Part shown: one piece after another, positions 5,917 to 57,345 of the stretch
How the letters are laid out: every line of letters starts with the position of its first letter
How positions within the stretch are numbered: position 1 is the stretch's first letter
Source: Terebella lapidaria
Taxonomy: Eukaryota; Annelida; Polychaeta; Terebellida; Terebellidae
Length of the DNA: 64,000 bases
Reading direction: 5' to 3'
Assembly (NCBI GenBank): GCA_949152475.1
Contig: OX424555.1
Coordinates: forward strand, 99,667,515-99,731,514
Translations under genes and position numbers: made by a program
Notes under the pieces: generated by a model
Seen by the model: the letters and a program-made list of their open reading frames with translations, nothing else
What the model was told of the DNA's origin: nothing
Databases searched by the model: none

Positions 5917-6125
5917 TCACAAGTGAATGGGGTTGACCCAAGCGACGACGTTGCCGTGTTTGATGTCCTGCCACTGACATTGGACGCTGCGTCTCTCTCC
6001 ATCAATCACGACCACCGAGTCCTTGGACGGCGTCATCAGGAAGTCTCCGAACATCCCACCGCCGAGGATCACTCGGTTGTGCTGACTCCAGGGCCACTCT
6101 TGGGGGTCCATGGCCGGCCCCACAC
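5917..6125 (-). CDS. FSTL4/5: FSTL4/5 exon 15: C-terminus and stop
   Basis: Encodes residues 906-974 and a TGA stop at 5917-5919. It contains EWPWSQHNRVI, GGMFGDFLMTPSKDSVVVID and GNVVAWVN, closely resembling the end of vertebrate FSTL5 (…FGQYLMTPSKDS…). The acceptor is TTTACAG. Confidence 0.92.
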
Positions 6126-9100
6126 CTGTAAATATACCATAACAGTTATCACACACAGGCTATCAATAACCGATTGTAGGTCATAGCACAGAACTAGCCA
6201 CGAACCTTGGATCATCTCAACTTTGCCGCTGTCCAGCTGGATGTAGAGCACATCGTTCCTGTTGGTGGCGCTGGCGTAGAAGTCGTATCCATGGCCGCGA
6301 CTCGACGGGAAAAACGTCACGTCACTGATGTGCAGGTTTGTGTACTCATCAAAGATGTGCTCCATAGAACCTGACAGCAGAACACATAGTCATTATCTCC
6401 ACACACAAAGCTCAGCGTGACAGATATCTGTCACTGACAGGCTTCCCCACCCCCCAACAACAAACAAACCTTCTCAATTCAAAAGTGGACACTGGTTATG
6501 ATGAATGCATACGCATTTAATGCTCACCGTCGTCAAGCAGTTTGCTGACTGACACCGTATTGCCGTCGGTTTCCACGGTGACGAGGTACCTAGCGTCGGG
6601 GGAAAGATAAGGTTCACCACCAAGGGCTGTGTGCTCCAGAACACGGTCAGTCACATAGTCAATGACCAGCCGTGTCGACTTGTCTGTCTGTCCGAGGGGC
6701 GACATGCAGTGCACGATTACTTGGCCGCCTGGGGAGGGAACAAACCAGGTCAGACATCCTAGCCAACAGGCAAACACACAACAACAGAGTGACAAAGTGA
6801 GAAGTTACCCATGGGGACGAAGGCGAGGGACTTGGGCAGGCAGCTGTAGCGTGTCAAGTCGATGTGGCGTACTACGGCCATGGTTCTCAGGTTGACTTTG
6901 TACAGTCCCTGCTCGTCCAGGTGGGTCACGTAACCGAAGTCGAACTCGTGTCGCAGGTCATTATTCAGTGGCAGAAACATGTCGTTGATCTGAAACATGC
7001 ACAAGTATTGTAGTACATTGATTGGTGAGACCGACTGAACCAAAAACATCGCGATTCTGCCCGACTTACCAGGTCAAACTGTCCTGCGACAGGCTGCATG
7101 TGCACGCTGTGGTGTTGCGAGTTCTCGCTTGCTCGCTGGATCACCACCGCGGTCTTGTCGCCGCTGTCGTCTGGACCGTTCCAGCACAGCACCCAGACCT
7201 GGTCCAGATGCTCTACATACTGTAGCTTGACTGGGTACTTGTCTGTCGGGATAATCTGTGCAGAGAATAAACTTACTGTAAACTGGGTTCCCAACACATG
7301 ACAATATGACTGTAACTACTTCTCGGCGGCTCTGCTGATATTGTTATGACGGTAACTACTTCACGGCGGCTCTGCTGATATTGTTATGAAGGTAACTACT
7401 TCTCGGCGGCTCTGCTGATATTGTTATGACGGTAACTACTTCTCGGCGGCTCTGCTGATATTGTTATGACGGTAACTACTTCTCGGAGGCTCTGCTGATA
7501 TTGTTATGAAGGTAACTACTTCTCGGCGGCTCTGCTGATATTGTTATGACGGTAACTACTTCACGGCGGCTCTGCTGATATTGTTATGACGGTAACTATT
7601 TCACAGCGGCTCTGCTGATATTGTTATGACGGTAACTACTTCTCGGCGGCTCTGCTGATATTGTTATGACGGTAACTACTTCTCGGCGGCTCTGCTGATA
7701 TTGTTATGACGGTAACTACTTCTCGGCGGCTCTGCTGATATTGTTATGACGGTAACTATTTCACAGCGGCTCTGCTGATATTGTTATGACGGTAACTACT
7801 TCTCGGCGGCTCTGCTGATATTGTTATGACGGTAACTACTTCTCGGCGGCTCTGCTGATATTGTTATGACGGTAACTACTTCTCGGCGGCTCTGCTGATA
7901 TTGTTATGAAGGTAACTACTTCTCGGCGGCTCTGCTGATATTGTTATGACGGTAACTACTTCTCGGCGGCTCTGCTGATATTGTTATGAAGGTAACTACT
8001 TCACAGCGGCTTTGCTGATATTGTTATGACGGTAACTATTTCACAGCGGCTCTGCTGATATTGTTATGACGGTAACTACTTCTCGGCGGCTCTGCTGATA
8101 TTGTTATGACGGTAATTACTTCTCGGCGGCTCTGCTGATATTGTTATGACGGTAATTACTTCACAGCGGCTCTGCTGATATTGTTATGACGGTAACTACT
8201 TCTCGGCGGCTCTGCTGATATTGTTATGACGGTAACTACTTCACAGCGGCTCTGCTGATATTGTTATGACGGTAACTACTTCTCGGCGGCTCTGCTGATA
8301 TTGTTATGACGGTAACTACTTCACAGCGGCTCTGCTGATATTGTTATGACGGTAACTACTTCTCGGCAGCTCTGCTGATATTGTTATGACGGTAACTACT
8401 TCACAGCGGCTCTGCTGATATTGTTATGACGGTAACTACTTCTCGGCGGCTCTGCTGATATTGTTATGACGGTAACTACTTCTCGGCGGCTCTGCTGATA
8501 TTGTTATGACGGTAACTATTTCACAGCGGCTCTGCTGATATTGTTATGACTGTAACTACTTCTCGGCGGCTCTGCTGATATTATTATGACGGCAACTACT
8601 TCTCGGCGGCTCTGCTGATATTGTTATGACGGTAACTACTTCACGGCGGCTCTGCTGATATTGTTATGACGGTAACTACTTCACGGCGGCTCTGCTGAAA
8701 TTGTTATGACGGTAACTACTTCTCGGCGGCTCTGCTGATATTGTTATGACGGTAACTACTTCACGGCGGCTCTGCTGATATTGTTATGACGGTAACTACT
8801 TCACGGCGGCTCTGCTGATATTGTTATGACGGTAACTACTTCTCGGCGGCTCTGCTGATATTGTTATGACGGTAACTACTTCACGGCGGCTCTGCTGAAA
8901 TTGTTATGACGGTAACTACTTCTCGGCGGCTCTGCTGATATTGTTATGACGGTAACTACTTCTCGGCGGCTCTGCTGATATTGTTATGAAGGTAACTACT
9001 TCACAGCGGCTCTGCTGATATTGTTATGACGGTAACTACTTCACGGCGGCTCTGCTGATATTGTTATGAAGGTAACTACTTCACGGCGGCTCTGCTGATA

Positions 9101-12100
9101 TTGTTATGACAGAAACTACTTCACGGCGGCTCTGCTGATATTGTTATGACGGTAACTACTTCTCGGCGGCTCTGCTGATATTGTTATGAAGGTAACTACT
9201 TCACAGCGGCTCTGCTGATATTGTTATGACGGTAACTACTTCACAGCGGCTCTGCTGATATTGTTATGACGGTAACTACTTCACAGCGGCTGGACTCACC
9301 TCCACAGGATTGATGCGTTTGGTGATCTCTATGACAACGACACGGTGGAGTTCGGGCTGTGAGATGTAGATGAAGCGATCACGGACGTTAACAGCACTGC
9401 CCCAGCTACAGTGGTCCTTGTTACAGAGCTGCGGCAGGCCCGTGTCTGACGGCACGTAGCGTAGGTTGGAAAACCCGGGGGTGACCTGGTGCTCGAGGTG
9501 GCAGCGACGCGGCTCATAGACAGAGTAACCGTGGTCGTGGAACACCAGAAACACCTCCTGGATACTACCACCTGGGCGAGAACCCAGAACAACATCTGAA
9601 TACACACTCGATCAGGCAAACGCTCAGAGCTAACTAGACGCTCCCGGTCGCCTACGACCGCTTGGGTGTATCCCCCGTAGCCCTATCATCACTGTTGCCC
9701 CAAATATATCACTGATGTACATTGTGAGTGTGAAACCTTTCAAGCTTATTGAAGGTCGAATCCAAGATCACCACTGAAATCACTGCACACGAATTTCCAT
9801 TTTGACATGTTCGATAAAATAACGAAATTATAGCCAGATAAAAGTTTTCACCATAAGTTATATTTCAACTCAACTATGTGCCAAACTTGGTTCCAAGTTG
9901 AAATTCAAAGTAAAAGTTGACGAAAACTACTTCTCAAGATGACGAAATGGGAGCCAGATCAAACTTTTCACCATCATTTAAATTTTAACTCATAATATGT
10001 GCCAAATTGGGTTTCAAGCTGAAATTCGAAGTAAAAATTGACTTTACTGGTAAAAATAATGTTAACTTATCCGGTTACACCCATGAAATCTCTACTGGAC
10101 AAAACTTCTAAATTGTTGAGCTCAATAATAAATGTTTCTTGTTTCAACTATTTTTCTTGAGGTCAATAATAGACTTAACTAGTAAAAATGATGTTAACTT
10201 ATTCGGTTACAGCCATGAAATCTTTACTGCACAAAAGCTTTACCTTGTTGAGCCCAATAATAAATGTTTCTTGTCTTAACTATTTTTCTTGAGGTCAATA
10301 ATAGACTTAACTAGTAAAAATGATGTTAACTTATTTGGTTACAGCCATGGAATCTTTACTGCACAGGAGCTTTACCTTGCTGAGCCCAATAATAAATGTT
10401 TCTTGTCTTAACTATTTTTATTGTTGTCAATAATAGACTTAACTAGTAAAAATAATGTTAACTTATTCGGTAACACCTGTGAAATCTCTACTGGACAAAA
10501 CCTTTACCTTGTTGAGCTCAATAATAAATGTTTCTTGTCTTAACTATTTTTATTGTGGTCAATTATAGACTTAACTAGTAAAACCAATGTTAACTTATTC
10601 AGTAATAATGTTCTGTTTTCACCAAAAACATCAGTTCTGTATTCTGAACAAGAATCCAGTGCAATTTGCTTTCATAGTAGCGGTTATTGGAGTGATCACA
10701 CATGTCAAAGTAGGTATTTTAATTGTCGTAATAAGTTCAAACTTATTAATACTCAAACTTATTAATATTTATTCGATCATTCTGAAAAACAATAGGTTTC
10801 GTGTGATGGTCTTTCTCATTGAGCCTGTGCAATTTCATCATCATTCATCGAAAACTCCCACCCGTAGAGCGTTCACAACCCATGTGTGTTAAACAGGCTA
10901 ATTTGAGCACAAAATGTTACGCCAATCGGCTATTTTGGTTGCTATGGCAACCAAAATCGATAGGTGTCGTGATCTTACCATAAGACATGTCCATATAAAA
11001 TTTTATCAAAATCGGTTCAGATTTGCAAGCTGCAGCGCGTTCACAAGAAAGTGTCTGCGGACGCGGACGCGGCGGCGGCGGCGGCGCGACGATCGTAAAT
11101 CCATAGTATCCGCCGAACTTTGTTCGGGGGATACAATTACCCATTTACCCGGTGATGATGGACTTTGATTGTACCTTTGGAGTATTTGGGCACATTGGAG
11201 TTCTCGATGAAGACTGTGGCGATGTCCTGAGAAGTCCCAGCTGAATTTGAGGCCACGCACTTGTATGCACCAGTGTCTTTAGTGTACATCGCCTTCTTGA
11301 TCTCTAGAGTTGACTTGTTGTCTGTCAAGGCAAATGAATTTCATCAGAGCAAACCTAAAAGATCTGCTGCTAAGAGAGTTATTAAAACACATAACATGAG
11401 GTAGTCTTTGTTGTCATGGGCTACAGTGAGTCTACATACGCAGCATGATGTAGTGTTTGTTGTCATGGGCTACAGTGAGTCTACATACGCAGCATGATGT
11501 AGTGTTTGTTGTCAGGGGTTACAGTGAGTCTACATACGCAGCATGATGTAGTGTTTGTTGTCAGGGGTTACAGTGAGTCTACATACGCATCACGAGGTAG
11601 TGTTTGTTGTCGGGGGTTACAGTGAGTCTACATACGTAGCATGAGGTAGTGTTTGTTGTCGGGAGTTACAGTGAGTATACATACGTAGCATGAGGTAGTG
11701 TTTGTTGTCAGGGGTTACAGTGAGTCTACATACGCAGCATGAGGTAGTGTTTGTTGTCATGGTTACAGTGAGTCTACATACTCAGCATGAGGTAGTGTTT
11801 GTTGTCAGGGGTTACAGTGAGTCTACATACGCAGCATGAGGTAGTGTTTGTTGTCATGGTTACAGTGAGTCTACATACGCAGCATGAGGTAGTGTTTGTT
11901 GTCAGGGGTTACAGTGAGTCTACATACGCAGCATGAGGTAGTGTTTGTTGTCATGGTTACAGTGAGTCTACATACTCAGCATGAGGTAGTGTTTGTTGTC
12001 AGGGGTTACAGTGAGTCTACATACGCAGCATGAGGTAGTGTTTGTTGTCATGGTTACAGTGAGTCTACATACGCAGCATGAGGTAGTGTTTGTTGTCAGG

Positions 12101-15100
12101 GGTTACAGTGAGTCTACATACGCAGCATGAGGTAGTGTTTGTTGTCATGGTTACAGTGAGTCTACATACGCAGCATGAGGTAGTGTTTGTTGTCGGGGGT
12201 TACAGTGAGTCTACATACGCAGCATGAGGTAGTGTTTGTTGTCAGGGGTTACAGTGAGAGGCTCCTCATTCATCTCCCAGCGAATCTCAGGCTCCGGAAC
12301 TCCATCGGCATGGCAACGCAGCTTGACGCTCCCTCCTGATGTGTGAAACTGGGTCGAGGGGCTGACCTTCACCTCTGGAGTCACTGTAACACAACACACA
12401 CTCAAGGTGAGTGAACTGGGTCAAGTATGAACTACACAGCATGTGTACATAGTGCTTCATAGGTGTGTGTACTGACTCTGTACTTTGAGGATGTGTGTAC
12501 TCAGTCTGTACTTTGAGGAGGTGTGTACTGACTCTGTACTTTGAGGATGTGTGTACTCAGTCTGTACTTTGAGGTGTGTACTCAGTCTGTACTTTGAGGA
12601 GGTGTGTACTGACTCTGTACTTTGAGGATGTGTGTACTGACTCTTGACTTTGAGGATGTGTGTACTGACTCTGTACTTTGAGGATGTGTGTACTGACTCT
12701 GTACTTTGAGGATGTGTGTACTGACTCTGTACTTTGAGGATGTGTGTACTCAGTCTGTACTTTGAGGATGTGTGTACTGACTCTGTACTTTGAGGATGTG
12801 TGTACTCACTCTGTACTTTGAGGATGTGTGTACTGACTCTGTACTTTGAGGATGTGTGTACTCACTCTGTACTTTGATGATGTGTGTACTCACTCTGTAC
12901 TTTGAGGATGTGTGTACTGACTCTGTACTTTGAGGATGTGTGTACTCACTCTGTACTTTGAGGATGTGTGTACTGACTCTGCACTTTGAGGATGTGTGTA
13001 CTCAGTCTGTACTTTGAGGATGTGTGTACTCACTCTGTACTTTGAGGATGTGTGTACTGACTCTTTACTTTGAGGATGGGTGTACTCACTCTGTACTTTG
13101 AGGATGTGTGTACTCACTCTGTACTTTGAGGATGTGGGTTTGCTGTACAGAATCCTCGTAGCGATCCTGACAGGTATAGTTGCCGATGTGGTGGAGCCCA
13201 ATGTTCTTCAGATAAAGTGAGCCATCTGTAAACACCTGTAAAGAGACAAGACGCCAATGATCTCCTGGACATTGTGCAGTCACCTCGCTCCAACAGCAGC
13301 ATGTTACTGGGTACACGCTGACCTGTATGTCACTAGTGTTGCTAGGTACTGACCTGTATGTCACTAGTGTTGCTAGGTACTGACCTGTATGTCACTAGTG
13401 TTGCTAGGTACTGACCTGTATGTCACTAGTGTTGCTAGGTACTGACCTGTATGTCACTAGTGTTGCTAGGTACTGACCTGTATGTCACTAGTGTTGCTAG
13501 GTGCTGACCTGTATGTCACTAGTGTTGCTAGGTGCTGACCTGTATGTCACTAGTGTTGCTAGGTACTGACCTGTATGTCACTAGTGTTGCTAGGTACTGA
13601 CCTGTATGTCACTAGTGTTGCTAGGTACTGACCTGTATGTCACTAGTGTTGCTAGGTACTGACCTGTATGTCACTAGTGTTGCTAGGTACTGACCTGTAT
13701 GTCACTAGTGTTGCTAGGTACTGACCTGTATGTCACTAGTGTTGCTAGGTGCTGACCTGTATGTCACTAGTGTTGCTAGGTACTGACCTGTATGTCACTA
13801 GTGTTGCTAGGTACTGACCTGTATGTCACTAGTGTTGCTAGGTACTGACCTGTATGTCACTAGTGTTGCTAGGTGCTGACCTGTATGTCACTAGTGTTGC
13901 TAGGTACTGACCTGTATGTCACTAGTGTTGCTAGGTACTGACCTGTATGTCACTAGTGTTGCTAGGTGCTGACCTGTATGTCACTAGTGTTGCTAGGTAC
14001 TGACCTGTATGTCACTAGTGTTGCTAGGTACTGACCTGTATGTCACTAGTGTTGCTAGGTACTGACCTGTATGTCACTAGTGTTGCTAGGTGCTGACCTG
14101 TATGTCACTAGTGTTGCTAGGTACTGACCTGTATGTCACTGGACACCAGTTTGTCCAAAGGCGCTCCGTTTCGCTGCCACACAATCTCCACAGCTCCCTC
14201 AATGTCACACCTCAGCTCCACACTGTTTCCACGGGTTACCCGGGAGGAGAAGACCTTGAGTTCCTCATCAAGTCGCACCGTCGAGATATCTGCACAAACA
14301 AAGGGACTACTTACAATCTAATCTACAGCAAACTGGATATTCATCAGCATAGTTCAGTGACAGATATCAGGAAAAGCTTCATTAACTCAACTAATCCTAC
14401 CATGTAAATTTTTCTCTATTTATGACATGCACACAAACAAAAAGTTTATTTGAAAGTCATGAACGTCCTAAACCTACCACCATTTTATTTTTCATACAAG
14501 TTCAGCATGCTCCAATTGTGCCCTAAGCTACTACTTTGTTCAATGTCTAATACTCATGCATAATCGACAGAACACAGCTGTGAAATTAATGGAAGAACTG
14601 TTTGCGTTGACATGTGAACATGTGGGCCGTGTGAATGCCACCAGTCTGTGTAGTGTGAGCATCGGCAACCGAATGTCACACTGTGTGTGATAAGATAATG
14701 AATGCAATTATATACTTTACCATGTCTAGAAAACGCTGCAGTGTAGTTTGTGTATGTTTATATGGACTGGAGTTGTCCTGAGAACTGACTCGGACATTGT
14801 GACTTGAGCTGCAGGAGGAATGTGTGGAGACTGGTGCAATGATAAATCACACGTCCCGTTCAATTTGACTTGCTCCATTACGCCTGTGACAGTTGTGACA
14901 AGTCCAGTGTGCTTACAGATTTAGTCAGGATTTGATTCAAGCACAGTAAATGCCATGGTAACTGTCACAGCCAGACTGACAGTTTGAGATTGGACCGTGA
15001 TGTGACAAGTCTAAAGACAGATCCACCGGATCAATGTAATTTCACAGAATCGCTGCTTTACGATACTTGAACAGCGCGTCACATCACAAGATCCAGTCAT

Positions 15101-18100
15101 CATGGAGAGATCCCACAGCTCTGGAAGCATTGATGTGTGCTAGGGGTGGAGTGGGGCAGGGAGGTGATGGGAATGGGGGTAGCATGGGGTAGGATGGTGG
15201 GGGTGTTCTATCTAAGAGCCAGCATAGACGGCACATCGTGTTAGTCACGGCACAAAACTTGGTCTCTCCGGGGCTATCAAACATCAAGTATTGTATTCTC
15301 CAGCGGCTCTCAGAAACAGAGCCGCAAGAAGCAATCGTCTTCGCCTCACCACCCGTATCAGGACAATGATCAGGCAAAGCAGGGCTCGCCTAATATAGAA
15401 CCCGGCACCGAGACTAAATCTTATAGACGGGTCAGTGACTGGCTAATACCTAAATATAGCAAGGTCACAGACACCGCCCCTCAGCATCTTCTGAAAACAT
15501 CCCAGGTTCTTGAACAGTTGTTATCAGGAAAACAGAGGTAGACGTGTCTAAGAGACTTTTGCCTATCAGTCTGTATGTATAATTGTGGTGGTTATTGCAG
15601 TAATGAGGGCTTGAGGGTCTTGAGGTGAGTGGGAGACAGGGAGAGGTGTGAGGGACTGTGTCTGTGTGTGGACTAGAGGACGACAGACCGGAGGGAGTCC
15701 TGTCACGACGCATCCCGGGAGTCTTGTGGGCGCCAGGGACAGAGATGGCCTGATTGCTGCCCAGCAGAACCCAAAACCTCCTCCCTCCCATACACACACC
15801 ACAACACACAGGGACATGTGCTACTGCCTCCCCCCCCCCCCTCCCCCCTCCATCCCCCACAAACTCAGGGCGACAGGTATTGATCCACGTGACTCACAGC
15901 CAAGGAGCCACAGAACGGAAGGCAAAGAACGGCCATGGTGGGGGTGAGTAGAGGTGGAGGCGAGAAACATGTTCGAGCCGCCTGTTGGATGTCCCCAGAT
16001 CCATGTAACCATGACAACATTTAACCCTCTGTCCTTGGATAAAACCCGAGGCTTACAGCCGCCTTGTGAGTCTCGAGCAGAGCTGCTCACATCAAAGGTC
16101 GACTTGTTGCTGGAGCGAGATAGCACTCCTCCCAACACACTCGCCTCACTAAATCCAAACTGCTCGCACAATATTGCATTAGCTAATAGCAGAAATATCA
16201 TTGTGTGTTCCTGGTAACGGTGCTGTCAAGTGTCTATATACAGTCAAACCTGTCTATGTGAGACACGCTGGGGACTTTGACAAAATGTCTCGCTTATGGG
16301 GGTGGCTCTGTTATCCAGGGTGAGATAGCCGGGCGCCAAGTGAAATTTTAACATATATGTATCAACACAATATGTCCATATCAATCATTCATTCTCATCA
16401 TAACGATCACCCAATGTCACGTGGACAAGTAAATGTACAAATCTAAAAATCTAAAACAGAATGGATAGACGTACAGTACTTTTTACGACTTGGTGCCTTC
16501 GTCTGAAAAAAAAATATTTTAAAAACAATTAAATAAAAATGAAATAAAATTAAATGATTTTTTCTTCTTGTTTTTCACTTGTTTCTATTACGAGTTGCAC
16601 ATTTTAGATTTTTTATTGTCATCATCATAATCTCATCATAATCTTGCCAAAAGGCATCGACAACTTTGCGCGACCTTTGTAGTTTATCATACAGTTCAAT
16701 CGCCTTCACTTTGTCGGCGAGTGAGAGCGTTACAGGTTGAGATTTTGTTTTTGGTTTAGACATGGTTGTTGATTTGCCAGTAAGTACTGATATGAAATAA
16801 AGCAACATCGCACTGGTATTTAAAGTGAATTTCTTGAATTGTATTAATCTACTCGGCAGTCAGCTACTCGATTTGTTATTACGTGTCAACAAAAAGTAAG
16901 CGGTGCGTGGAGTCACTATGTCTGCGACTTGAAATCACATCAGGGAACACAACCAGCAGTGTGACCAGGCTTCATTTGGTCACAATCTATTACAGTGTTT
17001 ATTTTAATTGAAAATTGGTCATGTGTGCGATATTGATAATGTACGTGCTATAACGGCAATCAATGAAACGTGACAGCGATGCCCCGCCCATAATTAACCC
17101 CAGTGATGGAATCCGCTACTGCCATTGGTTAACAGCATGTGACGACACCGATCAATAATGGGAATCACCGTGCATAATTGGCGTTGAACAATCGACCGGT
17201 GACATCGCTCATGTGACTGGCGCTCATACATAGGGTTATCGTAGATTGCGGACTGCAAATCACTGGCGCTCGGCGCCGTTGAGCAGGTGTATCGCTTTCA
17301 CAGTACATTTAACATGGCAGAGGGATCGGGACTTTGAGAAAACGTCTCGCTTGGACAGGTGTCGCCCATATAGAGGTGTATCGCTCACCAGGTTTGACTG
17401 TACCTCATGACTGGGAATGTGGTCGTAATATTGCTGGACATATTGTGTACAGCGTAGTGTGGCTAAGTCAGAAGTAAGAATTCCCTCACACTCGCCTAGA
17501 GCCACAAGCCCCACGATACCCGGGAGACTAGGCTCACAGCCTCCACTACCACTAAAATATTCAACAGGTGCTGTCCCCGACGTTAATCACCAGACGCCGC
17601 TGGCAATAATGAACCATCGTACTTGTGGTGGCAACAGCACACCACACACCTCTACAACACTACCCCGCACCTCCCGAAACCTTCTGGAACAGCCTAACAC
17701 TGATCAAATCATCAGAGTATATCTAGTTTAGAAATATTCTGTGCACTACAAATTTCAAACACTATAGTTGTCCTGCAAAAATTTTATGCAGAAAAGTACC
17801 TGTCATGCCATGGATGTTACCTAACTTACGGTGGATACTTACGGTAGGCGGTGTAGAACTCTGTCAGTGAGGTGTTACCTTTGTTGCCATGGATACTTAC
17901 GGTTGGCGGTGTAGAACTCTGTCAGTGAGATGTTACCTTGTTGCCATGGATACTTACGGTAGGCGGTGTAGAACTCTGTCAGTGAGATAGTACCTTGTTG
18001 CCATGGATACTTACGGTAGGCGGTGTAGAACTCTGTCAGTGAGATGTTGCCGTCGCCGTTGCGGTCGGAGAAGCTGAGGAAGTCTGTGAGGTGACAGAAG

Positions 18101-21100
18101 CGTGAGAGTTTGTCGAGGTGATTGCGGTGCTCTATATCAGACATCTCCGCCTCGGTCAGTTGCTGGTCCGATGTCTTGTCGTAGTAGTTAAACATGATGT
18201 TCGCCACAAACTGCTTCTCTGTAATAGAAACAGCAGATAAATACGGTATTTCCGTCAATAGTGTAACAAGCACGCACAAATTTTTATCGCCTTATTATGA
18301 GACGACATGGATTGTAGCAAACACACACATTTTCATCGCATTATTACGCAATAATATGTCATCATTATATATGCAATAATTATAGCGTATTTATACAATA
18401 TTGCATAATTATGCGAAAATATTGGGGCCCTTGTCCTGATGGAGCTACAGAGCTACAAAAATTCTGTCAAGTTTGTTTGGACAAATGACCAGTTGCACTA
18501 TGACCAGCAAAGCCGGTAGCACTACGGATACACCTCGGATGACGCTGCTGAGGCGTCACAGGGGTCCAAGTGAGACTGGGGCGCAATTTATAAGTTATCT
18601 ATGACTAGATTCTATGGGGATGACTGGGCAAATGTTCGCCTAACCATGCTAACAGGCCATCTTCAACGTGCTAAGTTGGCTTGCCTGTGTGCGTCCAACT
18701 GTGTATGCTGAATAGTATGAGCGCTGCAGGTGCGTCTGCTGAATCGACACGTGCATCCACAAAACTGACAACTCACACATGATGGATTCATCCATGAGTG
18801 TCTAATATATCTGAATAGATTAAAATATTCAAGTGCCATTTTTGGTGACCCAGGACGTGAACAGTACTGTAGACAATTTATCTGTTTGTGTGCTGTACAT
18901 TACACAACCATATTTCGTTTAAATGTACTCATTCGAGAGAGTTGTCGCTCAATAACACGCTGTGAATTCCCACACTCAGACAATGTGATTAGTGACCACA
19001 TGACTAGAACAGCTCAATGACAAGGGTTCTCGGGATTAATTCTGTGATTGATACCGCCCTCAAACTAACAACACTTGACCACTGATGGATGCTAATGGTT
19101 CTGGGCCTCGCACAGACACGAATCAATACGTCTATAATCGACCCGTGTCCTCTTACGGTCAGGAATCAATGCTGTCCCAATCTACTGTCACCTTCAGATG
19201 CAGTTGATGAGCTGTGATTGGAAGAATAAACAATATGCTGGACAAAACTGTGTTGGTGGGTTGAAGGGTGACAATACTTGGACTGGTCAGTGGGACATTG
19301 TCACCCGGTAACTGGTAACACATAACCAGCTGTCAGCCCCACACCATGCAGCTATATTTATTGGTACTTGACGCTATTATCACACACTGTGGGCAATAAC
19401 GCTGCCATGGCAACAGGACAAAGCCGTCACATTAATGTCTGCCAACAGATTATACAGCATTTTACGGCAGCTTTCTGCTTTAAAGTGCTTTTAGGCCACT
19501 TCGCTCTTCTGGCAATATAACTGTATGGAAATCAATATTAGTATCATAATAACATGAGTAACAGTACACAGTTGGAGGGTCACATTCGAGCAAAATCCTC
19601 GAATGTGACCCTCTGTGACGATTATGGCACTATAACATGTAAAATCTACCACAACAATGGCAGTTGACATGGAATCCTGTGGAAAATTGTTAGAACTGAG
19701 AAATGCAGAGTAACAGACTGGGAACAAAGTAGTGAATAAAACGTGGCAGGGACTCAGAACAAAGGTCCAGAGTGTAATTGGCTTTCGGTGTTGGACTTTT
19801 GTTTTGGGGCTCAAATTCTCCCGGGCTTTGTTTAATGAATCACCGTGAGATCCTAGTCTTGTCAGATGTACAATGCTCTCGACTTAAATGGAAGGTAATA
19901 TTGCCCAGACAGGACAAAGAGAAGTGAATACTTGATGTACAATGTGCACATAATTTACAGTCCAAACTCTAACCCTTCCATAGCTGTACACATTAGGAAA
20001 ATCGGTACGGGATTGTGTATGTCAGATGGCACTAGAGACTATCAGCAGACATACGATGTCACATATCAATTCAGCTCCACAACTTATCACGGTAACACAA
20101 TATACAGTCCTGCTTGGATGGGTCAATTTACCATTGACTGCAAAAATCTGCATATTACATGGATCAGTACAACAGTCTACACTCGGACAGGGTCAGTGTA
20201 AGGGTCTACATACTTGAAGGGTCAGTAGCACAGTCTATCTCGCCGATCCTGGCGCAGTGGTACTGAAGCAGGTTGGACTTGAGTCGGTTGTACTCCAATT
20301 CCTCACACGGGTTCGGAGTCAGACCGCCCAGCGCCGCCGGGTCCGGGTCTGTCTGCCCCGCCGCCGACTTGTCGCCATGGAGATGAGGCTCAGGTTCGCT
20401 GTAGTCAGACTCGGCGGCGGTGTCACTATAGTCTGGGAACTTCTGGAAATCCTGCTCGAGCTGCTGCCTCGAGTCGGCCTTCTGCTTCTCATCAGCGTTC
20501 TTCTCGACTTCCTTGGTGACATCAAACACCGGCGGCTTCCACGACTCCTTCTTGGATTCTGTGGAGACAAACACAGCAGTTTTACGGTCATCACACTCAC
20601 AGATAAACCTGTAGCCTAGGGCCATCACACTCACAGATAAACCTGTAGCTTTAGGGTCCTCACACTCACAGATAAACCTGTAGCTTTAGGGTCGTCACAC
20701 TCACAGATAAACCTGTAGCTTTAGAGTCGTCACACTCACAGATAAACCTGTAGCTTTAGGGCTGTCACACTCACAGATAAACCTGTAGCTTTAGGGTCGT
20801 CACACTCAGATAAACCTGTAGCTTTAGGGTTGTCACACTCATAGATAAACCTGTAGCTTCAGGGTCATCATACTCAGATAAACATGTAGCTTTATAGTTG
20901 TCACACTCACAGATAAACCTGTAGCTTTAGGGTCATCCTACTCACAGATTAACTTGTAGCTTTAGGGTCGTCACACTCACAGATAAACCTGTAGCTTTAG
21001 GGTTGTCACACTCACAGATAAACCTGTAGTTCAGGGTCGTCACACTCAGAGATAAACTTGTAGCTTTAGGGCCGTCACACTCACAGATAAACCTGTAGCT

Positions 21101-24100
21101 TTAGGGCTGTCACACTCACAGATAAACCTGTAGTTTAGGGTCGTCACACTCACAGATAAACCTGTAGCTTTAGGGCTGTCACACTCACAGATAAACCTGT
21201 AGCTTTAGGGCTGTCACACTCACAGATAAACCTGTAGCTTTATAGTTGTCACACTCACAGATAAACCTCTAGCTTTAGGGTCATCACACTCACAGATAAA
21301 CTTGTAGCTTTAGGGTCGTCACACTCACAGATATACCTGTAGCTTTAGGGTTGTCACACTCACAGATAAACCTGTAGCTTTAGGGTTGTCACACTCACAG
21401 ATAAACCTGTAGCTTTAGGGTCGTCACACTCAGAGATAAACCTGTAGCTTTAGGGCTGTCACACTCACAGATAAACCTGTAGCTTTATAGTTGTCACACT
21501 CACAGATAAACCTCTAGCTTTAGGGTCATCACACTCACAGATAAACTTGTAGCTTTAGGGTCGTCACACTCACAGATAAACCTGTAGCTTTAGGGCTGCC
21601 ACACTCACAGATAAACCTGTAGGTTTAGGGTCGTCACACTCACAGATAAACCTGTAGCTTTAGGGTCGTCACACTCACAGATAAACCTGTAGCTTTAGGG
21701 TCGTCACACTCACAGATAAACCTGTAGCTTTAGGGTCGTCAAACTCACAGATAAACCTGTAGCTTTAGGGCTGTCACACTCACAGATAAACCTGTAGCTT
21801 TCGGGTCATCACACTCACAGATAAACCTGTAGCTTTAGGGTCGTCACACTCACAGATAAACCTGTAGCTTTAGGGTCGTCACACTCACAGATAAACCTGT
21901 AGGTTTAGGGTCGTCACACTCACAGATAAACCTGTAGCTTTAGGGTCGTCACACTCACAGATAAACCTGTAGCTTTAGGGTCGTCACACTCACAGATAAC
22001 CTGTAGCTTTAGGGTCGTCACACTCACAGATAACCTGTAGCTTTCGGGTTGTCACACTCACAGATAAACCTGTAGCTTTAGGGTCGTCACACTCACAGAT
22101 AAACCTGTAGCTTTAGGGTCGTCACACTCACAGATAAACCTGTAGCTTTAGGGTCGTCACACTCAGAAAAACATGTAGCTTTAGGATTGTCACACTCACA
22201 GATAAACCTGTAGCTTTAGGGCTGTCACACTCACAGATAAACCTGTAGCTTTAGGGTCGTCACACTCACAGATAAACCTGTAGCTTTCGGGTCGTCACAC
22301 TCAGAGATAAACCTGTAGCTTTAGGGCTGTCACACTCACAGATAAACCTGTAGCTTTAGGGTGGTCACACTCACAGATAAACCTGTAGCTTTAGGGCTGT
22401 CACACTCACAGATAAACCTGTAGCTTTAGGGTCGTCACACTCACAGATAAACCTGTAGCTTTAGGGCTGTCACACTCACAGATAAACCTGTAGCTTTAGG
22501 GTCATCACACACAGATAAACCTGTAGCTTTAGGGTTGTCACACTCACAGATAAACCTGTAGCTTTAGGGTCGTCACACTCACAGATAAACCTGTAGCTTT
22601 AGGGTTGTCACACTCACAGATAAACCTGTAGCTTTAGGGTCGTCACACTCAGAGATAAACCTGTAGCTTTAGGGCTGTCACACTCACAGATAAACCTGTA
22701 GCTTTATAGTTGTCACACTCACAGATAAACCTCTAGCTTTAGGGTCATCACACTCACAGATAAACTTGTAGCTTTAGGGTCGTCACACTCACAGATAAAC
22801 CTGTAGCTTTAGGGTTGTCACACTCACAGATAAACCTGTAGCTTTAGGGCTGTCACACTCACAGATAAACCTGTAGCTTTAGGGTTGTCACACTCACAGA
22901 TAAACCTGTAGCTTTCGGGTCGTCACACTCACAGATACACCTGTAGCTTTAGGGTTGTCACACTCACAGATAAACCTGTAGTTTAGGGTCGTCACACTCA
23001 GAGATAAACCTGTAGCTTTCGGGTCGTCCCACTCACAGATAAACCTGTAGCTTTAGGGCTGCCACACTCACAGATAAACCTGTAGCTTTCGGGTCATCAC
23101 ACTCACAGATAAACCTGTAGCTTTAGGGTTGTCACACTCACAGATAAACCTGTAGCTTTAGGGTCGTCACACTCACAGATAAACCTGTAGCTTTAGGGTC
23201 GTCACACTCAGAGATAAACCTGTAGCTTTAGGGTCGTCACACTCAGAAAAACATGTAGCTTTAGGATTGTCACACTCACAGATAAACCTGTAGCTTTAGG
23301 GCTGTCACACTCACAGATAAACCTGTAGCTTTAGGGTCGTCACACTCACAGATAAACCTGTAGCTTTCGGGTCGTCACACTCACAGATAAACCTGTAGCT
23401 TTAGGGCTGTCACACTCACAGATAAACCTGTAGCTTTAGGGTCGTCACACTCAGAGATAAACCTGTAGCTTTAGGGCTGTCACACTCACAGATAAACCTG
23501 TAGCTTTATAGTTGTCACACTCACAGATAAACCTGTATCTTTAGGGTCGTCACACTCACAGATAAACCTGTAGCTTTAGGGTTGTCACACTCACAGATAA
23601 ACCTGTAGCTTTAGGGTTGTCATGATGTTTGTATCCAGATGACAAAAAGCCAATGTAAAGAAATGGTGAAATGGTGACATTATACAATGTAGTAGATTGT
23701 ATTGTTTGGTGTATTGTTTATGCTGATGACAGGTGCTGATTCATTGTTGATTTATTAGGAATAAAATCAGAAACGATTGATCTTCCTTAACTAGTTACTA
23801 ACTGAAGCTGTGAGAGGGTCAGAGTACGACACAGCTTCTAGTGCTACAGCCCATTGAAACAGGTACCTTCTACACGGTATAGGAAAAGGAACACTCGGAT
23901 AAACAGAAATTGTGCAGCAAACTTGGATACAAACATTCAAAGATAAACATAAACACAAGACCATCGCTGAGAGGCCACAAGACATTCTGCCCAGGGAATA
24001 ATTAAAATGTTTATAATTTCACTGAGTCCTACCAAATGTGGGCAAGTTATTGATCACACAAGGATTTCTCATTACTTCACACCACATGACCCTGACACTT

Positions 24101-27100
24101 GTGATGTGGGGCCGTCTCAGGGAGCACTCGTTGTCCCACAGATGACATGAGCACACGGAGCACTCATTGTCTGACAGATCTGAATCATGAACATCCACGG
24201 CATCCTTGCTGCACAAGATCTATCAATGATTCTACAAATGTACTCCACCACCTACACAAAGCTATCTTGCCAGTAAAACCCAACTTCTCTGTGCTGGACC
24301 TGATCCATGACCAAATAGAGAGTATTCAAGTGGAAAATGAAGAAATAACACACAGTATGATACTTCAGGTTTAGGAACACAAGTGAAGACCATGCCATAT
24401 CATGCCATGGGCTGGAATAATGACATGTCATCTGAGGATATGGATGTCATGGTTACCTGGGGGTGGGGCCACACACTTGGCCCCGGTGTGGTCGATGGCT
24501 ATGTGGATGTCATGGTTACCTGGGGGTGGGGCGACACACTTGGCCCCGGTGTGGTCGATGGCTATGTGTGTGTCATGGTTACCTGTGGGTGGGGCGACAC
24601 ACTTGGCCCCGGTGTGGTCGATGGCTATGTGGGTGTCATGGTTACCTGGGGGTGGGGCGACACACTTGGCCCCGGTGTGGTCGATGGCTATGTGGGTGTC
24701 ATGGTTACCTGTGGGTGGGGTGGCACACGTGGCCCCGGTGTGGTCGATGGCTATGTGTGTGTCATGGTTACCTGTGGGTGGGGCGACACACTTGGCCCCG
24801 GTGTGGTCGATGGCTATGTGGGTGTCATGGTTACCTGGGGGTGGGGCGACACACTTGGCCCCGGTGTGGTCGATGGCTATGTGGGTGTCATGGTTACCTG
24901 TGGGTGGGGCGACACACTTGGCCCCGGTGTGGTCGATGGCTATGTGTGTGTCATGGTTACCTGGGGGTGGGGCGACACACTTGGCCCCGGTGTGGTCGAT
25001 GGCTATGTGGGTGTCATGGTTACCTGCGGGTGGGGTGGCACACGTGGCCCCGGTGTGGTCGATGGCTATGTGGGTGTCAGGGTTACCTGGGGGTGGGGCG
25101 ACACACTTGGCCCCGGTGTGGTCGATGGCTATGTGGGTGTCAGGGTTACCTGGGGGTGGGGCGACACACTTGGCCCCGGTGTGGTCGATGGCTATGTGGG
25201 TGTCAGGGTTACCTGGGGGTGGGGTGGCTCACTTGGCCCTGGTGTGGTCGATGGCTATGTGGGTGTCATGGTTACCTGGAGGTGGGGCGACACACTTGGC
25301 CCCGGTGTGGTCGATGGCTATGTGGGGGTCATGGCTACCTGGGGGTGGGGTGGCACACTTGGCCCCGGTGTGGTCGATGGCTATGTGGATGTCATGGTTA
25401 TCTGGAGGTGGGGCGACACACTTGGCCCCGGTGTGGTCGATGGCTATGTGGATGTCATGGTTATCTGGAGGTGGGGCGACACACTTGGCCCCGGTGTGGT
25501 CGATGGCTATGTGGATGTCATGGTTATCTGGAGGTGGGGCGACACACTTGGCCCCGGTGTGGTCGATGGCTATGTGGGGGTCATGGTTACCTCGGGGTGG
25601 GGTGGCACACTTGGCCCTGGTGTGGTTGATGGCTATGTGGGTGTCATTGTTACCTGAGGGTGGGGTGGCACACGTGGCCCCGGTGTGGTCGATGGCTATG
25701 TGGGGGTCATGGTTACCTGGGGGTTGGGTGGCACACTTGGCCCCGGTGTGGTCGATGGCTATGTGGGGGTCATGGTTACCTGGGGGTGGGGTGGCACACT
25801 TGGCCCCGGTGTGGTCGATGGCTATGTGGGGGTCATGGTTACCTGGGGGTGGGGTGGCACACTTGGCCCTGGTGTGGTCGATGGCTATGTTGGTGTCATT
25901 GTTACCTGGGGGTGGGGTGGCACACGTGGGCCCGGTGTGGTCGATGGCTATGTGGGTGTCATTGTTACCTGGGGGTGGGGTGGCACACGTGGCCCCGGTG
26001 TGGTCAATGGCTATGTGGGGGTCATGGTTACCTGGGGGTGGGGTGGCACACTTGGCCCCGGTGTGGTCGATGGCTATGTGGGTGTCATGGTTACCTGTGG
26101 GTGGGGTGGCACACTTGGCCCCGGTGTGGTCGATGGCTATGTGGGTGTCATGGTTACCTGTGGGTGGGGTGGCACACGTGGCCCCGGTGTGGTCGATGGC
26201 TATGTGAGGGTCATGGTTACCTGGGGGTGGGGTGGCACACTTGGCCCCGGTGTGGTCGATGGCTATGTGGGGGTCATGGTTACCTGGGGGTGGGGTGGCA
26301 CACTTGGCCCTGGTGTGGTCGATGGCTATGTGGGTGTCATTGTTACCTGGGGGTGGGGTGGCACACGTGGCCCCGGTGTGGTCGATGGCTATGTGGGGTT
26401 CATGGTTACCTGGGGGTGGGGTGGCACACTTGGCCCCGGTGTGGTCGATGGCTATGTGGGGGTCATGGTTACCTGGGGGTGGGGTGGCACACTTGGCCCT
26501 GGTGTGGTCGATGGCTATGTGGGTGTCATTGTTACCTGGGGGTGGGGTGGCACACGTGGGCCCGGTGTGGTCGATGGCTATGTGGGTGTCATTGTTACCT
26601 GGGGGTGGGGTGGCACACGTGGCCCCGGTGTGGTCAATGGCTATGTGGGGGTCATGGTTACCTGGGGGTGGGGTGGCACACTTGGCCCCGGTGTGGTCGA
26701 TGGCTATGTGGGGGTCATGGTTACCTGGGGGTGGGGTGGCACACTTGGCCCTGGTGTGGTCGATGGCTATGTGGGTGTCATTGTTACCTGGGGGTGGGGT
26801 GGCACACGTGGCCCCGGTGTGGTCAATGGCTATGTGGGTGTCATGGTTACCTGTGGGTGGGGTGGCACACGTGGCCCCGGTGTGGTCAATGGCTATGTCG
26901 GTGTCATGGTTACCTGGGGTTGGGTGTCACACTTGGCCCCGGTGTGGTCAATGGCTATGTCGGTGTCATGGTTACCTGGGGGTGGGGTGGCACACGTGGC
27001 CCCGGTGTGGTCAATGGCTATGTGGGTGTCATGGTTACCTGTGGGTGGGGTGGCACACGTGGCCCCGGTGTGGTCAATGGCTATGTCGGTGTCATGGTTA

Positions 27101-30100
27101 CCTGGGGTTGGGTGTCACACTTGGCCCCGGTGTGGTCAATGGCTATGTCGGTGTCATGGTTACCTGGGGGTGGGATGGCACACGTGGCCCCGGTGTGGTC
27201 AATGGCTATGTGGGTGTCATGGTTACCTGTGGGTGGGGTGGCACACGTGGCCCCGGTGTGGTCGATGGCTATGTGGGTGTCATGGTTACCTGGAGGCGGG
27301 GTGGCACACTTGGCCCCGGTGTGGTCGATGGCTATGTGGGTGTCGCGGACGCAGGCCATGCGGTGGAGCTCACAGTGGCTGGGGTAGACAACACCATCAC
27401 TTCCGCAGACTTGTTTGCTGTGACCCAGGCAGTAGTCAGGCCCGGCACACACACAGTGACCCTTGCCTGCCTTGTCCAGCTCACAAGTGCGGCCGTACTT
27501 ACAGTAGATAGTCTTACACGCATCTGCAACAGAAAAACGCTACAACATGTACAAGATGATTGTGAACAATTCTGCTCCTCCCTCCTGAAAGTATTGATAA
27601 CATTGCAGTCTTAAGTGTTGAGGATATTTTTCATGTCTATATTTGGCACCACAACATTCTGCGAAATCGTCTGGGGTCTGAACAAGTGTAATTCTCGCCA
27701 AATTGACAAAAAGTTGCAGCAGAGAGCCTGAGGCTGTAACCATGGTAACAGTATTGATCTTAAAAAAAGGTACTGTTTCACAAAACAAACATGGATTTCA
27801 TATCTGAGCCAACTGGTACCAAACCTTCAGATGCAGTATATCTACAGTCACAACAACTATTCAAGTTTCAGTTTGAGTACTGACCTTGAAAGGCTGCTGG
27901 GTGTGGTTTGCCTGTTGGTTTGCCTGTTGGTTTGTGGGTGGGTTTGTCAGTGACGGGTCCTGTGGTGACCGGGCTGGTGGCGGGTTTTAGTTGTTTGCGG
28001 ATGTTGTCAGTGGTTGCAGGTTTCTTGTTCTCCGGCGGAGTCCAGATCGAGTCTCGAAAGTGGTACTCACTTGAATCATCGTAGAACGCTGGGGGTACAA
28101 ACGGTCGACCGCTCAGGTCTCCAGACTTGTAGTAACCCTGTCACAAAACACAGCTCACTGTACACCAAAACACATGTCATAAAACAGCACAATCTTCAAC
28201 AGTAACCCAGCACGAAACACAGGAAACAAAAAAAATTAGCCCAATGGGCTAGAAAGGTTACCGGAGAAATATACAGAGTTAAGCCGAGAAAGTTGTTGGT
28301 CAAATTCAAGGTGACAACTGAAATCGCCATATCTCTAACCTTGAAAATGGGATCAAAGGTTAAATTCTAGATCACCAAACTATTCAGCATACATCATTTC
28401 CTATATGTTCACTATGGGCCCCTAAGCTGTAAATTTGATAATAAGCGAGATATAAGCCATTTTGTAATCTGACTTTGAAAATAAAATGACACCTTGAAAT
28501 TTAGGTCAAAGGTCAAACTCAATATCATTAAAATATTCAGAATATCTCATTTCCTATATGTTCACAATTGATTCCTAAGCTGTAAAGTCGATAATAAGCA
28601 AGATATTAGCCATTTTGTCCTGTTGAGCTTGAAAATGAGGTCAAAAGTCAAATTCAAGGCCACTAGAATATTCAGCATATATCATTTCCTATATGTTCAC
28701 AATTGATTCCTAAGCTGTGAAGTCGCTAAGAAGCAAAATATTGGCCATTTTGTCCTGTGACCTTGGAAATGAGGTCAAAGGTCAAATTCAAGGTCACGAG
28801 AATATTCAGCATATATCATTTCCTATATGCCCACAATTGATTCCTAAGCTGTAAAGTCGATATTAAGTGAGATATTAGCCATTTTGTCCTGTGACCTTGA
28901 AATGAGGTCAAAGGTCAAATTCAAGGTCATGACAATAATCTGCATATATCATTTCCTATATGTTCATAACTGATTCCTAAGCTGTAAAGTCGATAACAAG
29001 CGAGATATTAGCCATTTTGTCCTGTGACCTTGAAAATGAGTTCGAAGGTCAAATTCAAGGTCATCAAAATATCCAGCATATATCATTTCCTATATCTCCA
29101 CAATTGATTCCTAAGCTGTAGAGTCGATAATAAGCGAGATATAAGCCATTTTGTGCTCTGACCTTGAAACTGAGGTCAGAGGTCAAATTCAAGGTCACGA
29201 GAATATTCAGCATATATTATTTCCTATATGTCCACAATTGATTCCTAAGCTGTAGAGTCGATAATAAGCGAGATATAAGCCATTTTGTGCTCTGACCTTG
29301 AAACTGAGCAGGGATCGACATTAACACTGGCCCGCTGGCCCCACTCCATATTTTGAACCTGTGGGGCCAGTAGGGGCCACCAGATTCTCTAAGTCACTGG
29401 CCCCACTGGGCCAGTATAAAATCTGCATTCTTTGAATTTGTACCTAACAATGTTTCAGTTCCTTTGAAAGCCTTTCCGTGTTCTTTGTAAAAAATACATC
29501 AGTGTTTGATATTCATGTACATATTGATCATGTTGATTGATATTAAACTTCGAAAGTGGGGCCAGTAGATTATGGATGGGGCCAGTAATTTCCAGATGTT
29601 ACTGGCCCCATAGGGCCACTGGTATCATATGCCTAATGTCGATCCCTGCTGAGGTCAGAGGTCAAATTCAAGGTCACGAGAATATTCAGCATATATAATT
29701 TCCTATATGTCCACAATTGATTCCTAGTCTCTAATCTCAATATCAAGTGAGATATTAGGCATAATGTGTCCCATTATAAAGCATAGGAGAATTTAACATG
29801 GGAAAGTCCTATTTGGGCCGAGTTTGGGCCAAAATGGCCCACTTCGAGCGATTCAAGCGCAACGAAATTTATAGACATCATAGAAGTACATATGAGGAGT
29901 CTTATGTATCAAAAAGAAAAAAAGTTACTGAACAGATTTTGAGAAAATGGCCGCCAAAGTCCAAAATCAGGCCTTTTTCGTCGAAAATGGCCTCCATTTT
30001 GAAGGAAAAGCGAAAATCAAAAAACTAAAAAATACCTCCTTCTTGAATTATTTTTAAGTATTTTTCTGCAAAATTTCAGAAAAATTCGCCCGTAAACAAA

Positions 30101-31569: not shown

Positions 31570-33700
31570 CATAAAGGCCTAGAGGCCTTGGGGCATTTCG
31601 ATCCACAACACAATCACAGGAGAACTGTTAATTACTGACAACTCTGCAACCAAAATGATTATGTACAATGTAGATACATCCATTTCAATCCAAGATGACG
31701 GTTTCTGCCCAGGCACAATTTCACCCAATATACCCCTAAGACATGTTTGTCTAGTACCACAAGTCCAAAAATAACATCCATTTCATTCAACGATGCATCG
31801 TTTCCCAGATATGGCCAAAAATGAAAAATGTCAAGAAAGCAAAAGAAAAATTGGCCCAGGATCAAGTTGACCCAACATACCCCTAAGACATAATTGCCTA
31901 GTGTCATGAGTCCTAAAATAACGTCCGTTTCGCTCTATGACACACTGTTTCCGAGATATGGCCGAAAATGAAGCACGCCGACTCAGCAAAAAAAAATTGG
32001 CCCAGGGCCAAGTTCACCCAACATACCCCTAAGACACGTTTGCCTAGTGTCACAAATCCGAAAATAATGTCCGTTTCGCTCTACGACGCACCGTTTCCAA
32101 GATATCGACGAAAACGAAAAATGCCGCTTCGGCAAAAAAGTTTTGGGTCAAGGTCAAAGTTCATCCATAATACCCCTAAGGCATGTTTGTCTAGGTCGAC
32201 GAGTCCGAAAATAACGTCCGTTTCACTCTACGACGCACCAATTCCGAGATATCAACGAAAACGGAAAATGCCGACTCGGCAACAAAATTTCGGGTCAAGG
32301 TCAAAATTCATCCATAAAACCCTCAAGACATGTTTGTCTAGGTCGACGAGTCCAAAAATGGCGTCCATTTCGCTCTACGACGCACTGTTTCCGAGATATT
32401 GGCAAAAACGAAAAATGCCAAATTGGCGAAAACATTTTGGGTCAAGGTCAAAGTTCATCTATAATACCCTTAGGACATGTTTGTCTAGGTTCACGAGTCC
32501 AAAAATAACGTCCGTTTCGCTCCACGACGCACCGTTTCCGAGATATGGGCCGAAAATGAAAAACGTCGACTCAGCAAAAGAAAATTTGGCCCAGGGCCAA
32601 GTTCACTCAAGATACCCCCTAAGACATGTTTGCTTAGTGTCACGAGTCCGAAAATAATGTCTGTTCCGCTCTACGATGCACCGTTTCCGAGATAATGAAG
32701 AAAACGAAAAATGTCGACTCGGCAAAAATATTTCGGGTCAAGGTCAAAGTTCATCCATAATGCCCTCAAGACATGTTTGTCTAGGTCAACGAGTCCAAAA
32801 ATGACGTTTCGCTCCACGACTTAACGTTTCCGAGATATGGGCCGAAAATGAAAAACATGGACTCAGCAAAAGAAAATTTGGCCCAGGGCCAAGTTCACCC
32901 AAGATACCCCTTAAGACATGTTTGCTTAGAGTCACGAAAATAACGTCCGTTCCGCTCTACGATGCACCGTTTCCAAGATATTGAAGAAAACGAAAAATGT
33001 TGACTCGGCAAAAAAAATTCGGGTCAAGGTCAAAGTTCATCCATAATACCCTCAAGACATGTTTGTCTAGGTCAACGAGTCCAAAAATGACGTCCGTTTC
33101 GCTTCACGACGCACCGTTTCCGAGATATCGAAGAAAACAAAAAATGCCGACTCGGCAAAAAAATTTCGGGTCCAGGCCAAAGTTCGTCCATAATACCCCT
33201 TAGACATGTTTGTCTAGGGCGACGAGTCCGAAAATAACGTCCGTTTCGCTCTACGACGTACCGTTTCCGAGATATGCAGGATGCCTCAAGGATGACTCAG
33301 CAAAAAATGATTTCAACCTCATCGTCCGGAAACCAAGTCTCAAAATCAGCATTGATTTCATCCTCTCGGACCTCACAGACCTCGGAGCCGGATCAAAAAA
33401 AAATACCCCTCAGAGATGTTTGTCTAGTGCGACGAGTCTGAAAATAAAGTCCATTTCACTCTACGACGCACCGTTTCTGAGATATCGAAGAAAACGAAAA
33501 ATGCCGACTCGACAAAAAAGATTTGGGGCGACGAGTCCGAAAATAACGTTCGTTTCGCTCTACGACGTACCATTTCTGAGATATGCAGGATGCCTCAAGG
33601 ATGACTAAAGCAAAAAATTATTTCGACCTCTAGGTCAAAAGCCCAAAATCAATAGGGTTCTTCTCTGGTGGTATCAACCAGGAGCTAGCGGCCACACCCA
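31570..33700 (+). mobile_element. Satellite element C, copy 2
   Basis: Starts near a small hairpin AAGGCCTAGAGGCCTT and GGGGCATTTCG. It consists of more than ten diverged copies of a ~147-bp unit with the core CGTTTCGCTCTACGACGCAC plus CGTTTCCGAGATAT, followed by a non-repeated arm that ends with AGGGTTCTTCTCTGGTGGTA. Open frames through it reflect repeat periodicity, not a gene. Confidence 0.85.
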
Positions 33701-57180: not shown

Positions 57181-57345
57181 AAAACTAAAAAATACCTCCT
57201 TCTTGAATTATTTTTAAGTATTTTTGTGCAAAATTTCAGAAAAATTCGCCCGTAAAGAAAAAAGATAAAAATGTGGACGACGACGACGGACGACGGACGC
57301 AACGCCACGCCAATAGGTTATCGGACCATAGGTCCGGTAACCTAA
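57181..57345. mobile_element. Element B right end, continuation after the element D insertion
   Basis: Continues the element B arm broken at 54916 and includes the GACGACGACGG tract and terminal hairpin ending CCGGTAACCTA. Together with the part before 54917 it forms one element B copy split by element D. Confidence 0.82.

What the first reader, a model, noticed from the sequence alone, without database searches (positions are those of the whole stretch)
7304..27345. Minisatellites repeatedly seeded on the 5' splice sites of one gene
Five of the seven large arrays in the FSTL4/5 gene (after exons 3, 5, 6, 7 and 8) have a repeat unit made of the last 11 to ~51 nt of the exon plus its own donor. 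The donors differ (GTAACC, GTAAGT, GTCAGT, GTGAGT, GTATGT) and the unit lengths differ (60, 57, 31, 28, 46/49), so the arrays arose independently at the same kind of site. A sixth array begins 8 nt after the exon-10 donor. Independent recurrence at exon-intron borders in a single gene calls for a mechanism tied to 5' splice sites (transcription- or R-loop-linked slippage, or selection for extra donor/U1 sites).
Basis: partly seen in the sequence, partly recalled or inferred. Interest (0 to 1): 0.88.

Follow-up and report, generated by a model that had tools for sequence, protein, structure and literature searches.

The report
Minisatellites growing across exon ends
In one animal gene of the follistatin-like type, several introns have been swollen by tandem copies of the end of the preceding exon together with its splice signal; this matches a curiosity already described in lancelets ("mirages"), and much of the pattern could come from very short introns plus selection rather than from a special mechanism at splice sites.

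Summary
In a minus-strand gene model (exons 2-15 in the window), the exon end plus its 5' splice site lies inside the repeat unit at 5 of 13 donors (introns 3, 5, 6, 7, 8), and at 0 of 13 acceptors; a sixth donor (intron 4) is only suggestive. Units are 63, 57, 31, 28 and 48/49 nt and unrelated, so origins look independent. The kind is not new: exon-intron-boundary minisatellites of lancelets are in print as "mirages" (Adh3, globins, troponin C, PGBD5). Whether this window is a lancelet could not be tested.

The inference that a donor-linked mechanism is needed is weaker. Without arrays, introns 6, 7, 8 and 10 are about 80-101 nt, like introns 11, 12 and 14 (80 nt each). In such introns a 28-63 nt duplication can hardly avoid the donor or the 3' signals, and copies of the donor should be tolerated best. 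That null gives 5 of 7 easily if introns 3 and 5 were also short once, poorly at their present lengths. Donor columns are not generally better conserved among copies, which gives no support to selection for extra donors. Unit ends close behind the donor are a weak residual hint of a donor-linked process. Slippage is untested.

The parts
27290..27523 (-). exon 3 (Kazal domain); its last 55 nt are the first copy of the intron-3 array
   Evidence: gene model; Pfam; edge
24441..27344 (-). intron-3 donor-spanning array, 63-nt unit, 46 copies; in frame, 69 codons to the first stop if retained
20581..23622 (-). second intron-3 array, 35-nt unit, 87 copies, ends 22 nt before the acceptor of exon 4; does not include the exon
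20147..20237 (-). exon-4 end and possible decayed donor-spanning repeat in intron 4; suggestive only
   Evidence: Markov resamples 15 of 5000; real-sequence sliding control 6 of 342
17832..18048 (-). intron-5 donor-spanning array, 57-nt unit, 3.8 copies, in frame (46 codons to the first stop if retained)
13318..14140 (-). intron-6 donor-spanning array, 31-nt unit, 26.5 copies; 82 nt of intron remain after it
12464..13136 (-). intron-7 donor-spanning array, 28-nt unit, 24 copies; 80 nt of intron remain after it
11395..12258 (-). intron-8 donor-spanning array, 48/49-nt unit, 17.7 copies; 73 nt of intron remain after it
7305..9291 (-). intron-10 array, 40-nt unit, 49.7 copies, starts at +9 after the donor; 49 nt of intron remain after it
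5917..28137 (-). follistatin-like (FSTL4/5-type) gene, exons 2-15; 862 residues read in one frame over exons 3-15
   Evidence: Pfam Kazal_2, two I-set domains and SPARC_Ca_bdg (20 bits, below its cut-off of 22); the FSTL name rests on domain order, recalled
9572..11174 (-). intron 9: about 1513 of 1603 nt is dispersed repeat; about 90 nt remain
   Evidence: segment 9625-11137; intron length

Best explanation
These are mirage-type boundary minisatellites. Tandem duplications of about 30-60 nt arise at many places in the gene, by a process not resolved here. In introns of about 80-100 nt most of them hit the exon, the donor or the branch-point/acceptor zone. Those spanning a donor are tolerated, because the first (original) donor still defines the exon and all further copies become intron; those in exons or spanning acceptors are mostly purged. 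Surviving duplications then expand and homogenise, probably by unequal exchange, into 4-46 copies and inflate the introns. Shown: the anatomy, the short array-free introns, 5 of 13 donors against 0 of 13 acceptors, no general excess of conservation at donor columns. Inferred: use of the first donor, the purging, unequal exchange, and that introns 3 and 5 were once short.
For: Five firm donors and 0 of 13 acceptors. Sequence left downstream of the array is 82, 80, 73 and 49 nt in introns 6, 7, 8 and 10; array-free introns 11, 12, 13 and 14 are 80, 80, 157 and 80 nt; intron 9 is about 90 nt without its dispersed repeats. Null model for 7 firm arrays: P(5 or more at donors) 0.33-0.97 with all introns about 90 nt and acceptor copies tolerated at 0-20% of the rate. 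Donor window ranks 23/63, 23/31, 22/28, 29/49 in conservation. The spliced frame is open over exons 3-15 when the first donor is used; retained copies would bring stops after 3, 10 and 2 codons in introns 6, 7, 8. Short tandem similarity also occurs away from donors, e.g. near 24157 and 18317. Published mirages are reported not to disturb splicing (PMC3087553, PMC3902484, passages).
Against: With introns 3 and 5 at present length the same null gives P 0.0016-0.052 (up to 0.055 with the intron-5 element taken out), and 0.067-0.11 even with compact introns if acceptor copies were fully tolerated. With intron 4 counted (6 of 8) the figures are 0.00006-0.0023 and 0.027-0.057. Introns 2 (361 nt) and 4 (1995 nt) are not short and hold no firm array, so short introns throughout are not shown. 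Intron 5 carries a 1164-nt element (16239-17402) but about 2.4 kb more is unexplained; in intron 3 an inverted repeat around the stretch between the arrays is weak (15 of 1000 shuffles). GT is kept in all copies of introns 5, 6 and 8. Unit ends lie close behind the donor. No RNA data.
Confidence: 0.55

Rival explanations
1. Breaks or nicks are targeted to the stretch just behind the 5' splice site (for example R-loops or stalled co-transcriptional U1 complexes), so duplications start there by mechanism.
For: Intronic parts of the units are 8, 20-23, 19, 6-9 and 9 nt; P of so small a sum 0.006-0.097 for the 5 firm arrays, 0.003-0.076 with intron 4. The intron-10 array begins at +9. Introns 3 and 5, long today, are also hit at the donor.
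Against: Post hoc, five to six events, sensitive to the minimum part assumed; chance matches at the left edge make the intronic part look shorter. Geometry can explain introns 6, 7, 8 and 10. Tandem similarity also exists away from donors. Published lancelet cases include 3' boundaries (PMC3087553).
Confidence: 0.2
2. Extra donors are selected, as a U1 platform or buffer for splicing fidelity.
For: Many copies keep the exact 9-mer of the first donor: 34, 4, 20, 7 and 13 sites in introns 3, 5, 6, 7, 8, the first included. GT is kept in 27 of 27, 18 of 18 and 4 of 4 copies in introns 6, 8, 5.
Against: Donor window conservation ranks 23/63, 23/31, 22/28 and 29/49; intron 5 ranks 1/57 but has 4 copies; GT lost in 5 of 24 and 3 of 46 copies of introns 7 and 3. 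Recent common descent of copies suffices.
Confidence: 0.05
3. The repeats are coding: exon 3 or exon 5 can extend in frame through copies, giving a variable-length protein.
For: 63- and 57-nt units are multiples of 3; 69 and 46 codons to the first stop if retained.
Against: Three of five units are not multiples of 3 and stop after 3, 10 and 2 codons. The intron-3 frame ends at 27081.
Confidence: 0.07
4. Assembly artefact.
For: Long arrays are error-prone; no reads or second assembly available; intron 6 has only 2 distinct units among 26.
Against: 32 distinct units among 46 in intron 3; an assembler does not know donors; in the published PGBD5 case newer reads confirmed the repeats (PMC3902484, passages).
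Confidence: 0.05

Closest known systems
Lancelet 'mirages' (Adh3, Canestro et al. 2002, known to me only through citing papers; globins Gb6 and Gb9, PMC3087553; troponin C and PGBD5, PMC3902484)
   Same: Minisatellite-like tandem repeats spanning exon-intron boundaries; many copies carry splice signals; in print said not to disturb splicing (passages)
   Different: Here 5 (perhaps 6) in one gene, all at donors, up to 46 copies; in the passages I saw, globin and PGBD5 copy numbers are about 2-7 and both 5' and 3' boundaries occur. Species of this window unknown.
Human tandem repeats at exon-intron boundaries in segmental duplications (PMC2812944, passages)
   Same: Repeats with units of about 30 bp alter gene structure, 27 intron modifications among them
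   Different: About 4 copies on average; found as differences between recent paralogs and tied to new introns
Intron gain by tandem genomic duplication (Rogers' AG/GT idea, as cited in PMC3087553; PMC4974935, listing only)
   Same: Tandem duplication involving splice signals
   Different: Here existing introns grow; no new intron is shown

Membership tests
mirage minisatellites | tandem array spans an exon-intron boundary | tested here: met
   5 of 13 donors firm, 0 of 13 acceptors
mirage minisatellites | minisatellite-size unit (10-72 bp in Adh3, up to about 160 bp in globins) | tested here: met
   28-63 nt; ranges from PMC3087553 (passage)
mirage minisatellites | normal splicing despite duplicated signals | not testable with these tools
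   only the open spliced frame is shown; no RNA
mirage minisatellites | length instability, even somatic | not testable with these tools
   one sequence only
mirage minisatellites | occurs in a cephalochordate genome (as in all cases in the passages read) | tested here: inconclusive
   no genome held; a 28-nt satellite pattern gave 0 matches in genome contigs and viral contigs, which says nothing about lancelets
transposon-derived repeat array | unit dispersed elsewhere | tested here: not met
   the seven arrays are outside the dispersed segments, tested within this window only; the 132-nt array of intron 9 lies in one
intron gain by tandem duplication | duplication creates an intron in a formerly continuous exon | not tested
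   needs orthologues

The most novel reading that the evidence does not exclude
Tandem duplications in this lineage are nucleated by breaks just downstream of the U1-bound 5' splice site, so that 5' splice sites are mutational hotspots for minisatellite birth and introns lengthen from their 5' ends.
Probability: 0.17. Interest if true: 0.85.

Novelty: new member of a known kind. Interest (0 to 1): 0.45.

Why it matters
It is a rich example (five firm, apparently independent cases in 13 introns) of a little-studied way in which introns grow, and it yields a simple testable null: compact introns plus tolerance of duplicated donors. If genome data exceeded that null in long introns, it would point to a splice-site-linked source of DNA duplication. 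The arrays also pose a natural splicing test: how the first of up to 34 identical donor 9-mers is chosen.

Tried and rejected
Selection for extra donors: tested by conservation among copies, no general excess. Homology at the ends of the first duplicated segments: one search printed 0 nt in 7 of 7 (the five firm donor arrays, intron 4 and intron 10; the 35-nt array was not tested). On checking I withdraw this as evidence: the left edge was set where the periodicity stops, so 0 is expected by construction, and decayed last copies hide the right edge. Slippage is therefore neither supported nor refuted. A sixth firm donor case in intron 4: looked firm (0 of 300), downgraded after the real-sequence control. 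Acceptor arrays: none of 13. Growth of arrays from the exon side: identity to the first copy falls along the array weakly in intron 7 (rho -0.44, p 0.04) and not significantly in introns 3, 6, 8, 10; intron 5 not tested. A terminal-inverted-repeat element between the intron-3 arrays: weak (15 of 1000 mononucleotide shuffles). Species identification: no Rfam match at gathering scores; satellite pattern 0 matches; one repeat-rich stretch (55523-57349) without phage match. C. elegans CeRep25B paper (PMC4039745, passages) and Plasmodiophora paper (PMC6823432, passages): not the same phenomenon.
Full report
What is there. On the minus strand lies a gene whose 14 exons in the window (exons 2-15) can be read with GT-AG borders; exons 3-15 give one open frame of 862 residues. 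Pfam finds a Kazal_2 domain, two immunoglobulin domains and a SPARC calcium-binding match (20 bits, below its cut-off of 22). The follistatin-like 4/5 name rests on this order of domains and is recalled. Third-position GC is 0.71.

The arrays. Seven large arrays lie in the gene, outside the dispersed-repeat segments of the window. Five cross a donor (introns 3, 5, 6, 7, 8). The array of intron 10 begins at +9, and a second array of intron 3 ends 22 nt before the acceptor. Aligned with its own intron, the exon end beats all 300 first-order Markov resamples at 6 of 13 donors, while 13 of 13 acceptors are unremarkable, the lowest count being 53 of 300. The sixth donor, intron 4, does not stand out enough on real sequence: 6 of 342 sliding positions reach its score, one being the site itself, and with nearer targets (808 positions) 9 listed positions at three places score higher. 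I keep it as suggestive.

Independent origins. Units, lengths and donors differ between the arrays, and so does the spread among copies: 32 distinct units of 46 in intron 3, 2 of 26 in intron 6. How the first duplications were made is open: the end-homology count is 0 by construction and is not used.

Why donors? The sequence between the end of the array and the acceptor is 82, 80, 73 and 49 nt in introns 6, 7, 8 and 10. With one unit kept, these introns would be about 80-101 nt (my subtraction). Introns 11, 12 and 14 are 80 nt and intron 13 is 157 nt; intron 9 is about 90 nt without its dispersed repeats. Introns 2 (361 nt) and 4 (1995 nt) do not fit this picture. In a short intron a 28-63 nt duplication has few places that miss both the donor and the 3' zone. 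I modelled uniformly placed duplications, dropping those in exons and discounting those over acceptors. For the 7 firm arrays the chance of 5 or more at donors is 0.33-0.97 if all introns were about 90 nt and acceptor copies are tolerated at 0-20% of the rate, 0.067-0.11 if acceptor copies are fully tolerated, and 0.0016-0.052 if introns 3 and 5 had their present length, up to 0.055 with the intron-5 element removed. An earlier run with 8 arrays, intron 4 included, gave 0.18-0.92, 0.027-0.057 and 0.00006-0.0023. So the filter can account for four arrays, and for all only if introns 3 and 5 were short. Intron 5 holds an element with perfect 14-nt inverted ends (16239-17402); a 62-residue open piece from it has no Pfam match. 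For intron 3 an insertion between the arrays is only hinted at (15 of 1000 shuffles).

Hints of mechanism. The intronic part of the unit is 8, 20-23, 19, 6-9 and 9 nt. Sums this small have P 0.006-0.097 under the assumptions tried, 0.003-0.076 with intron 4. This was noticed after the fact, rests on five or six events, and chance matches at the left edge push in the same direction.

Selected donors? In the arrays with many copies the nine donor columns rank 23 of 63, 23 of 31, 22 of 28 and 29 of 49 windows in conservation (introns 3, 6, 7, 8). Intron 7 has lost GT in 5 of 24 copies and intron 3 in 3 of 46; introns 6, 8 and 5 keep GT in 27 of 27, 18 of 18 and 4 of 4, and intron 5 ranks first of 57 but has 4 copies. 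Exact copies of the first donor 9-mer number 34, 4, 20, 7 and 13 in introns 3, 5, 6, 7, 8. On balance there is no general excess of conservation at the donor.

Protein. If copies were retained in mRNA, introns 6, 7 and 8 would stop after 3, 10 and 2 codons, introns 3 and 5 after 69 and 46, so limited in-frame extension is conceivable for the last two.

Literature. [quoted passage not shown] PMC3902484 (passages) adds PGBD5 and troponin C. PMC2812944 (passages) gives human examples. My ten answered paper searches listed no paper that I recognised as a genome-wide donor-versus-acceptor count of such arrays; for most listed papers I saw only title and abstract start. The kind is therefore known. 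What is notable here is the number and size of the arrays in one gene.

Limits. The species is unknown, no whole genome is held, and there are no reads, RNA or orthologues. Use of the first donor, purging of acceptor copies and unequal exchange are inferences. On checking I withdrew the end-homology argument; my odds did not rest on it and are unchanged.

Noticed in passing
window 16239-17402: A DNA element in intron 5 with perfect 14-nt inverted ends TACAGTCAAACCTG/CAGGTTTGACTGTA, apparently a decayed TA-flanked transposon; a 62-residue open piece has no Pfam match.
   Followed up: partly
window 42296-54949: A 12.6-kb repeat stretch dominated by a 134-bp satellite with a 402-bp higher-order period.
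   Followed up: no
window 2681-3929, 31707-33276, 38976-39549: A 147/294-bp satellite that appears in both orientations in the window.
   Followed up: no
window 10036-10600 and 37091-37511: A 132-bp tandem family inside dispersed repeats, one array lying in intron 9.
   Followed up: partly
window 1-410: A 46-bp array that starts at the first base of the window and could not be placed relative to a gene.
   Followed up: no
window 20581-23622: The 35-nt unit of the second intron-3 array itself holds GTGAGT and a branch-point-like CCTAAAG, so it may come from an intron end or a lost exon (seen by eye).
   Followed up: no
window 27904-27934: A 12-nt in-frame coding repeat in exon 2 (Thr-Gly-Lys-Pro).
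   Followed up: no
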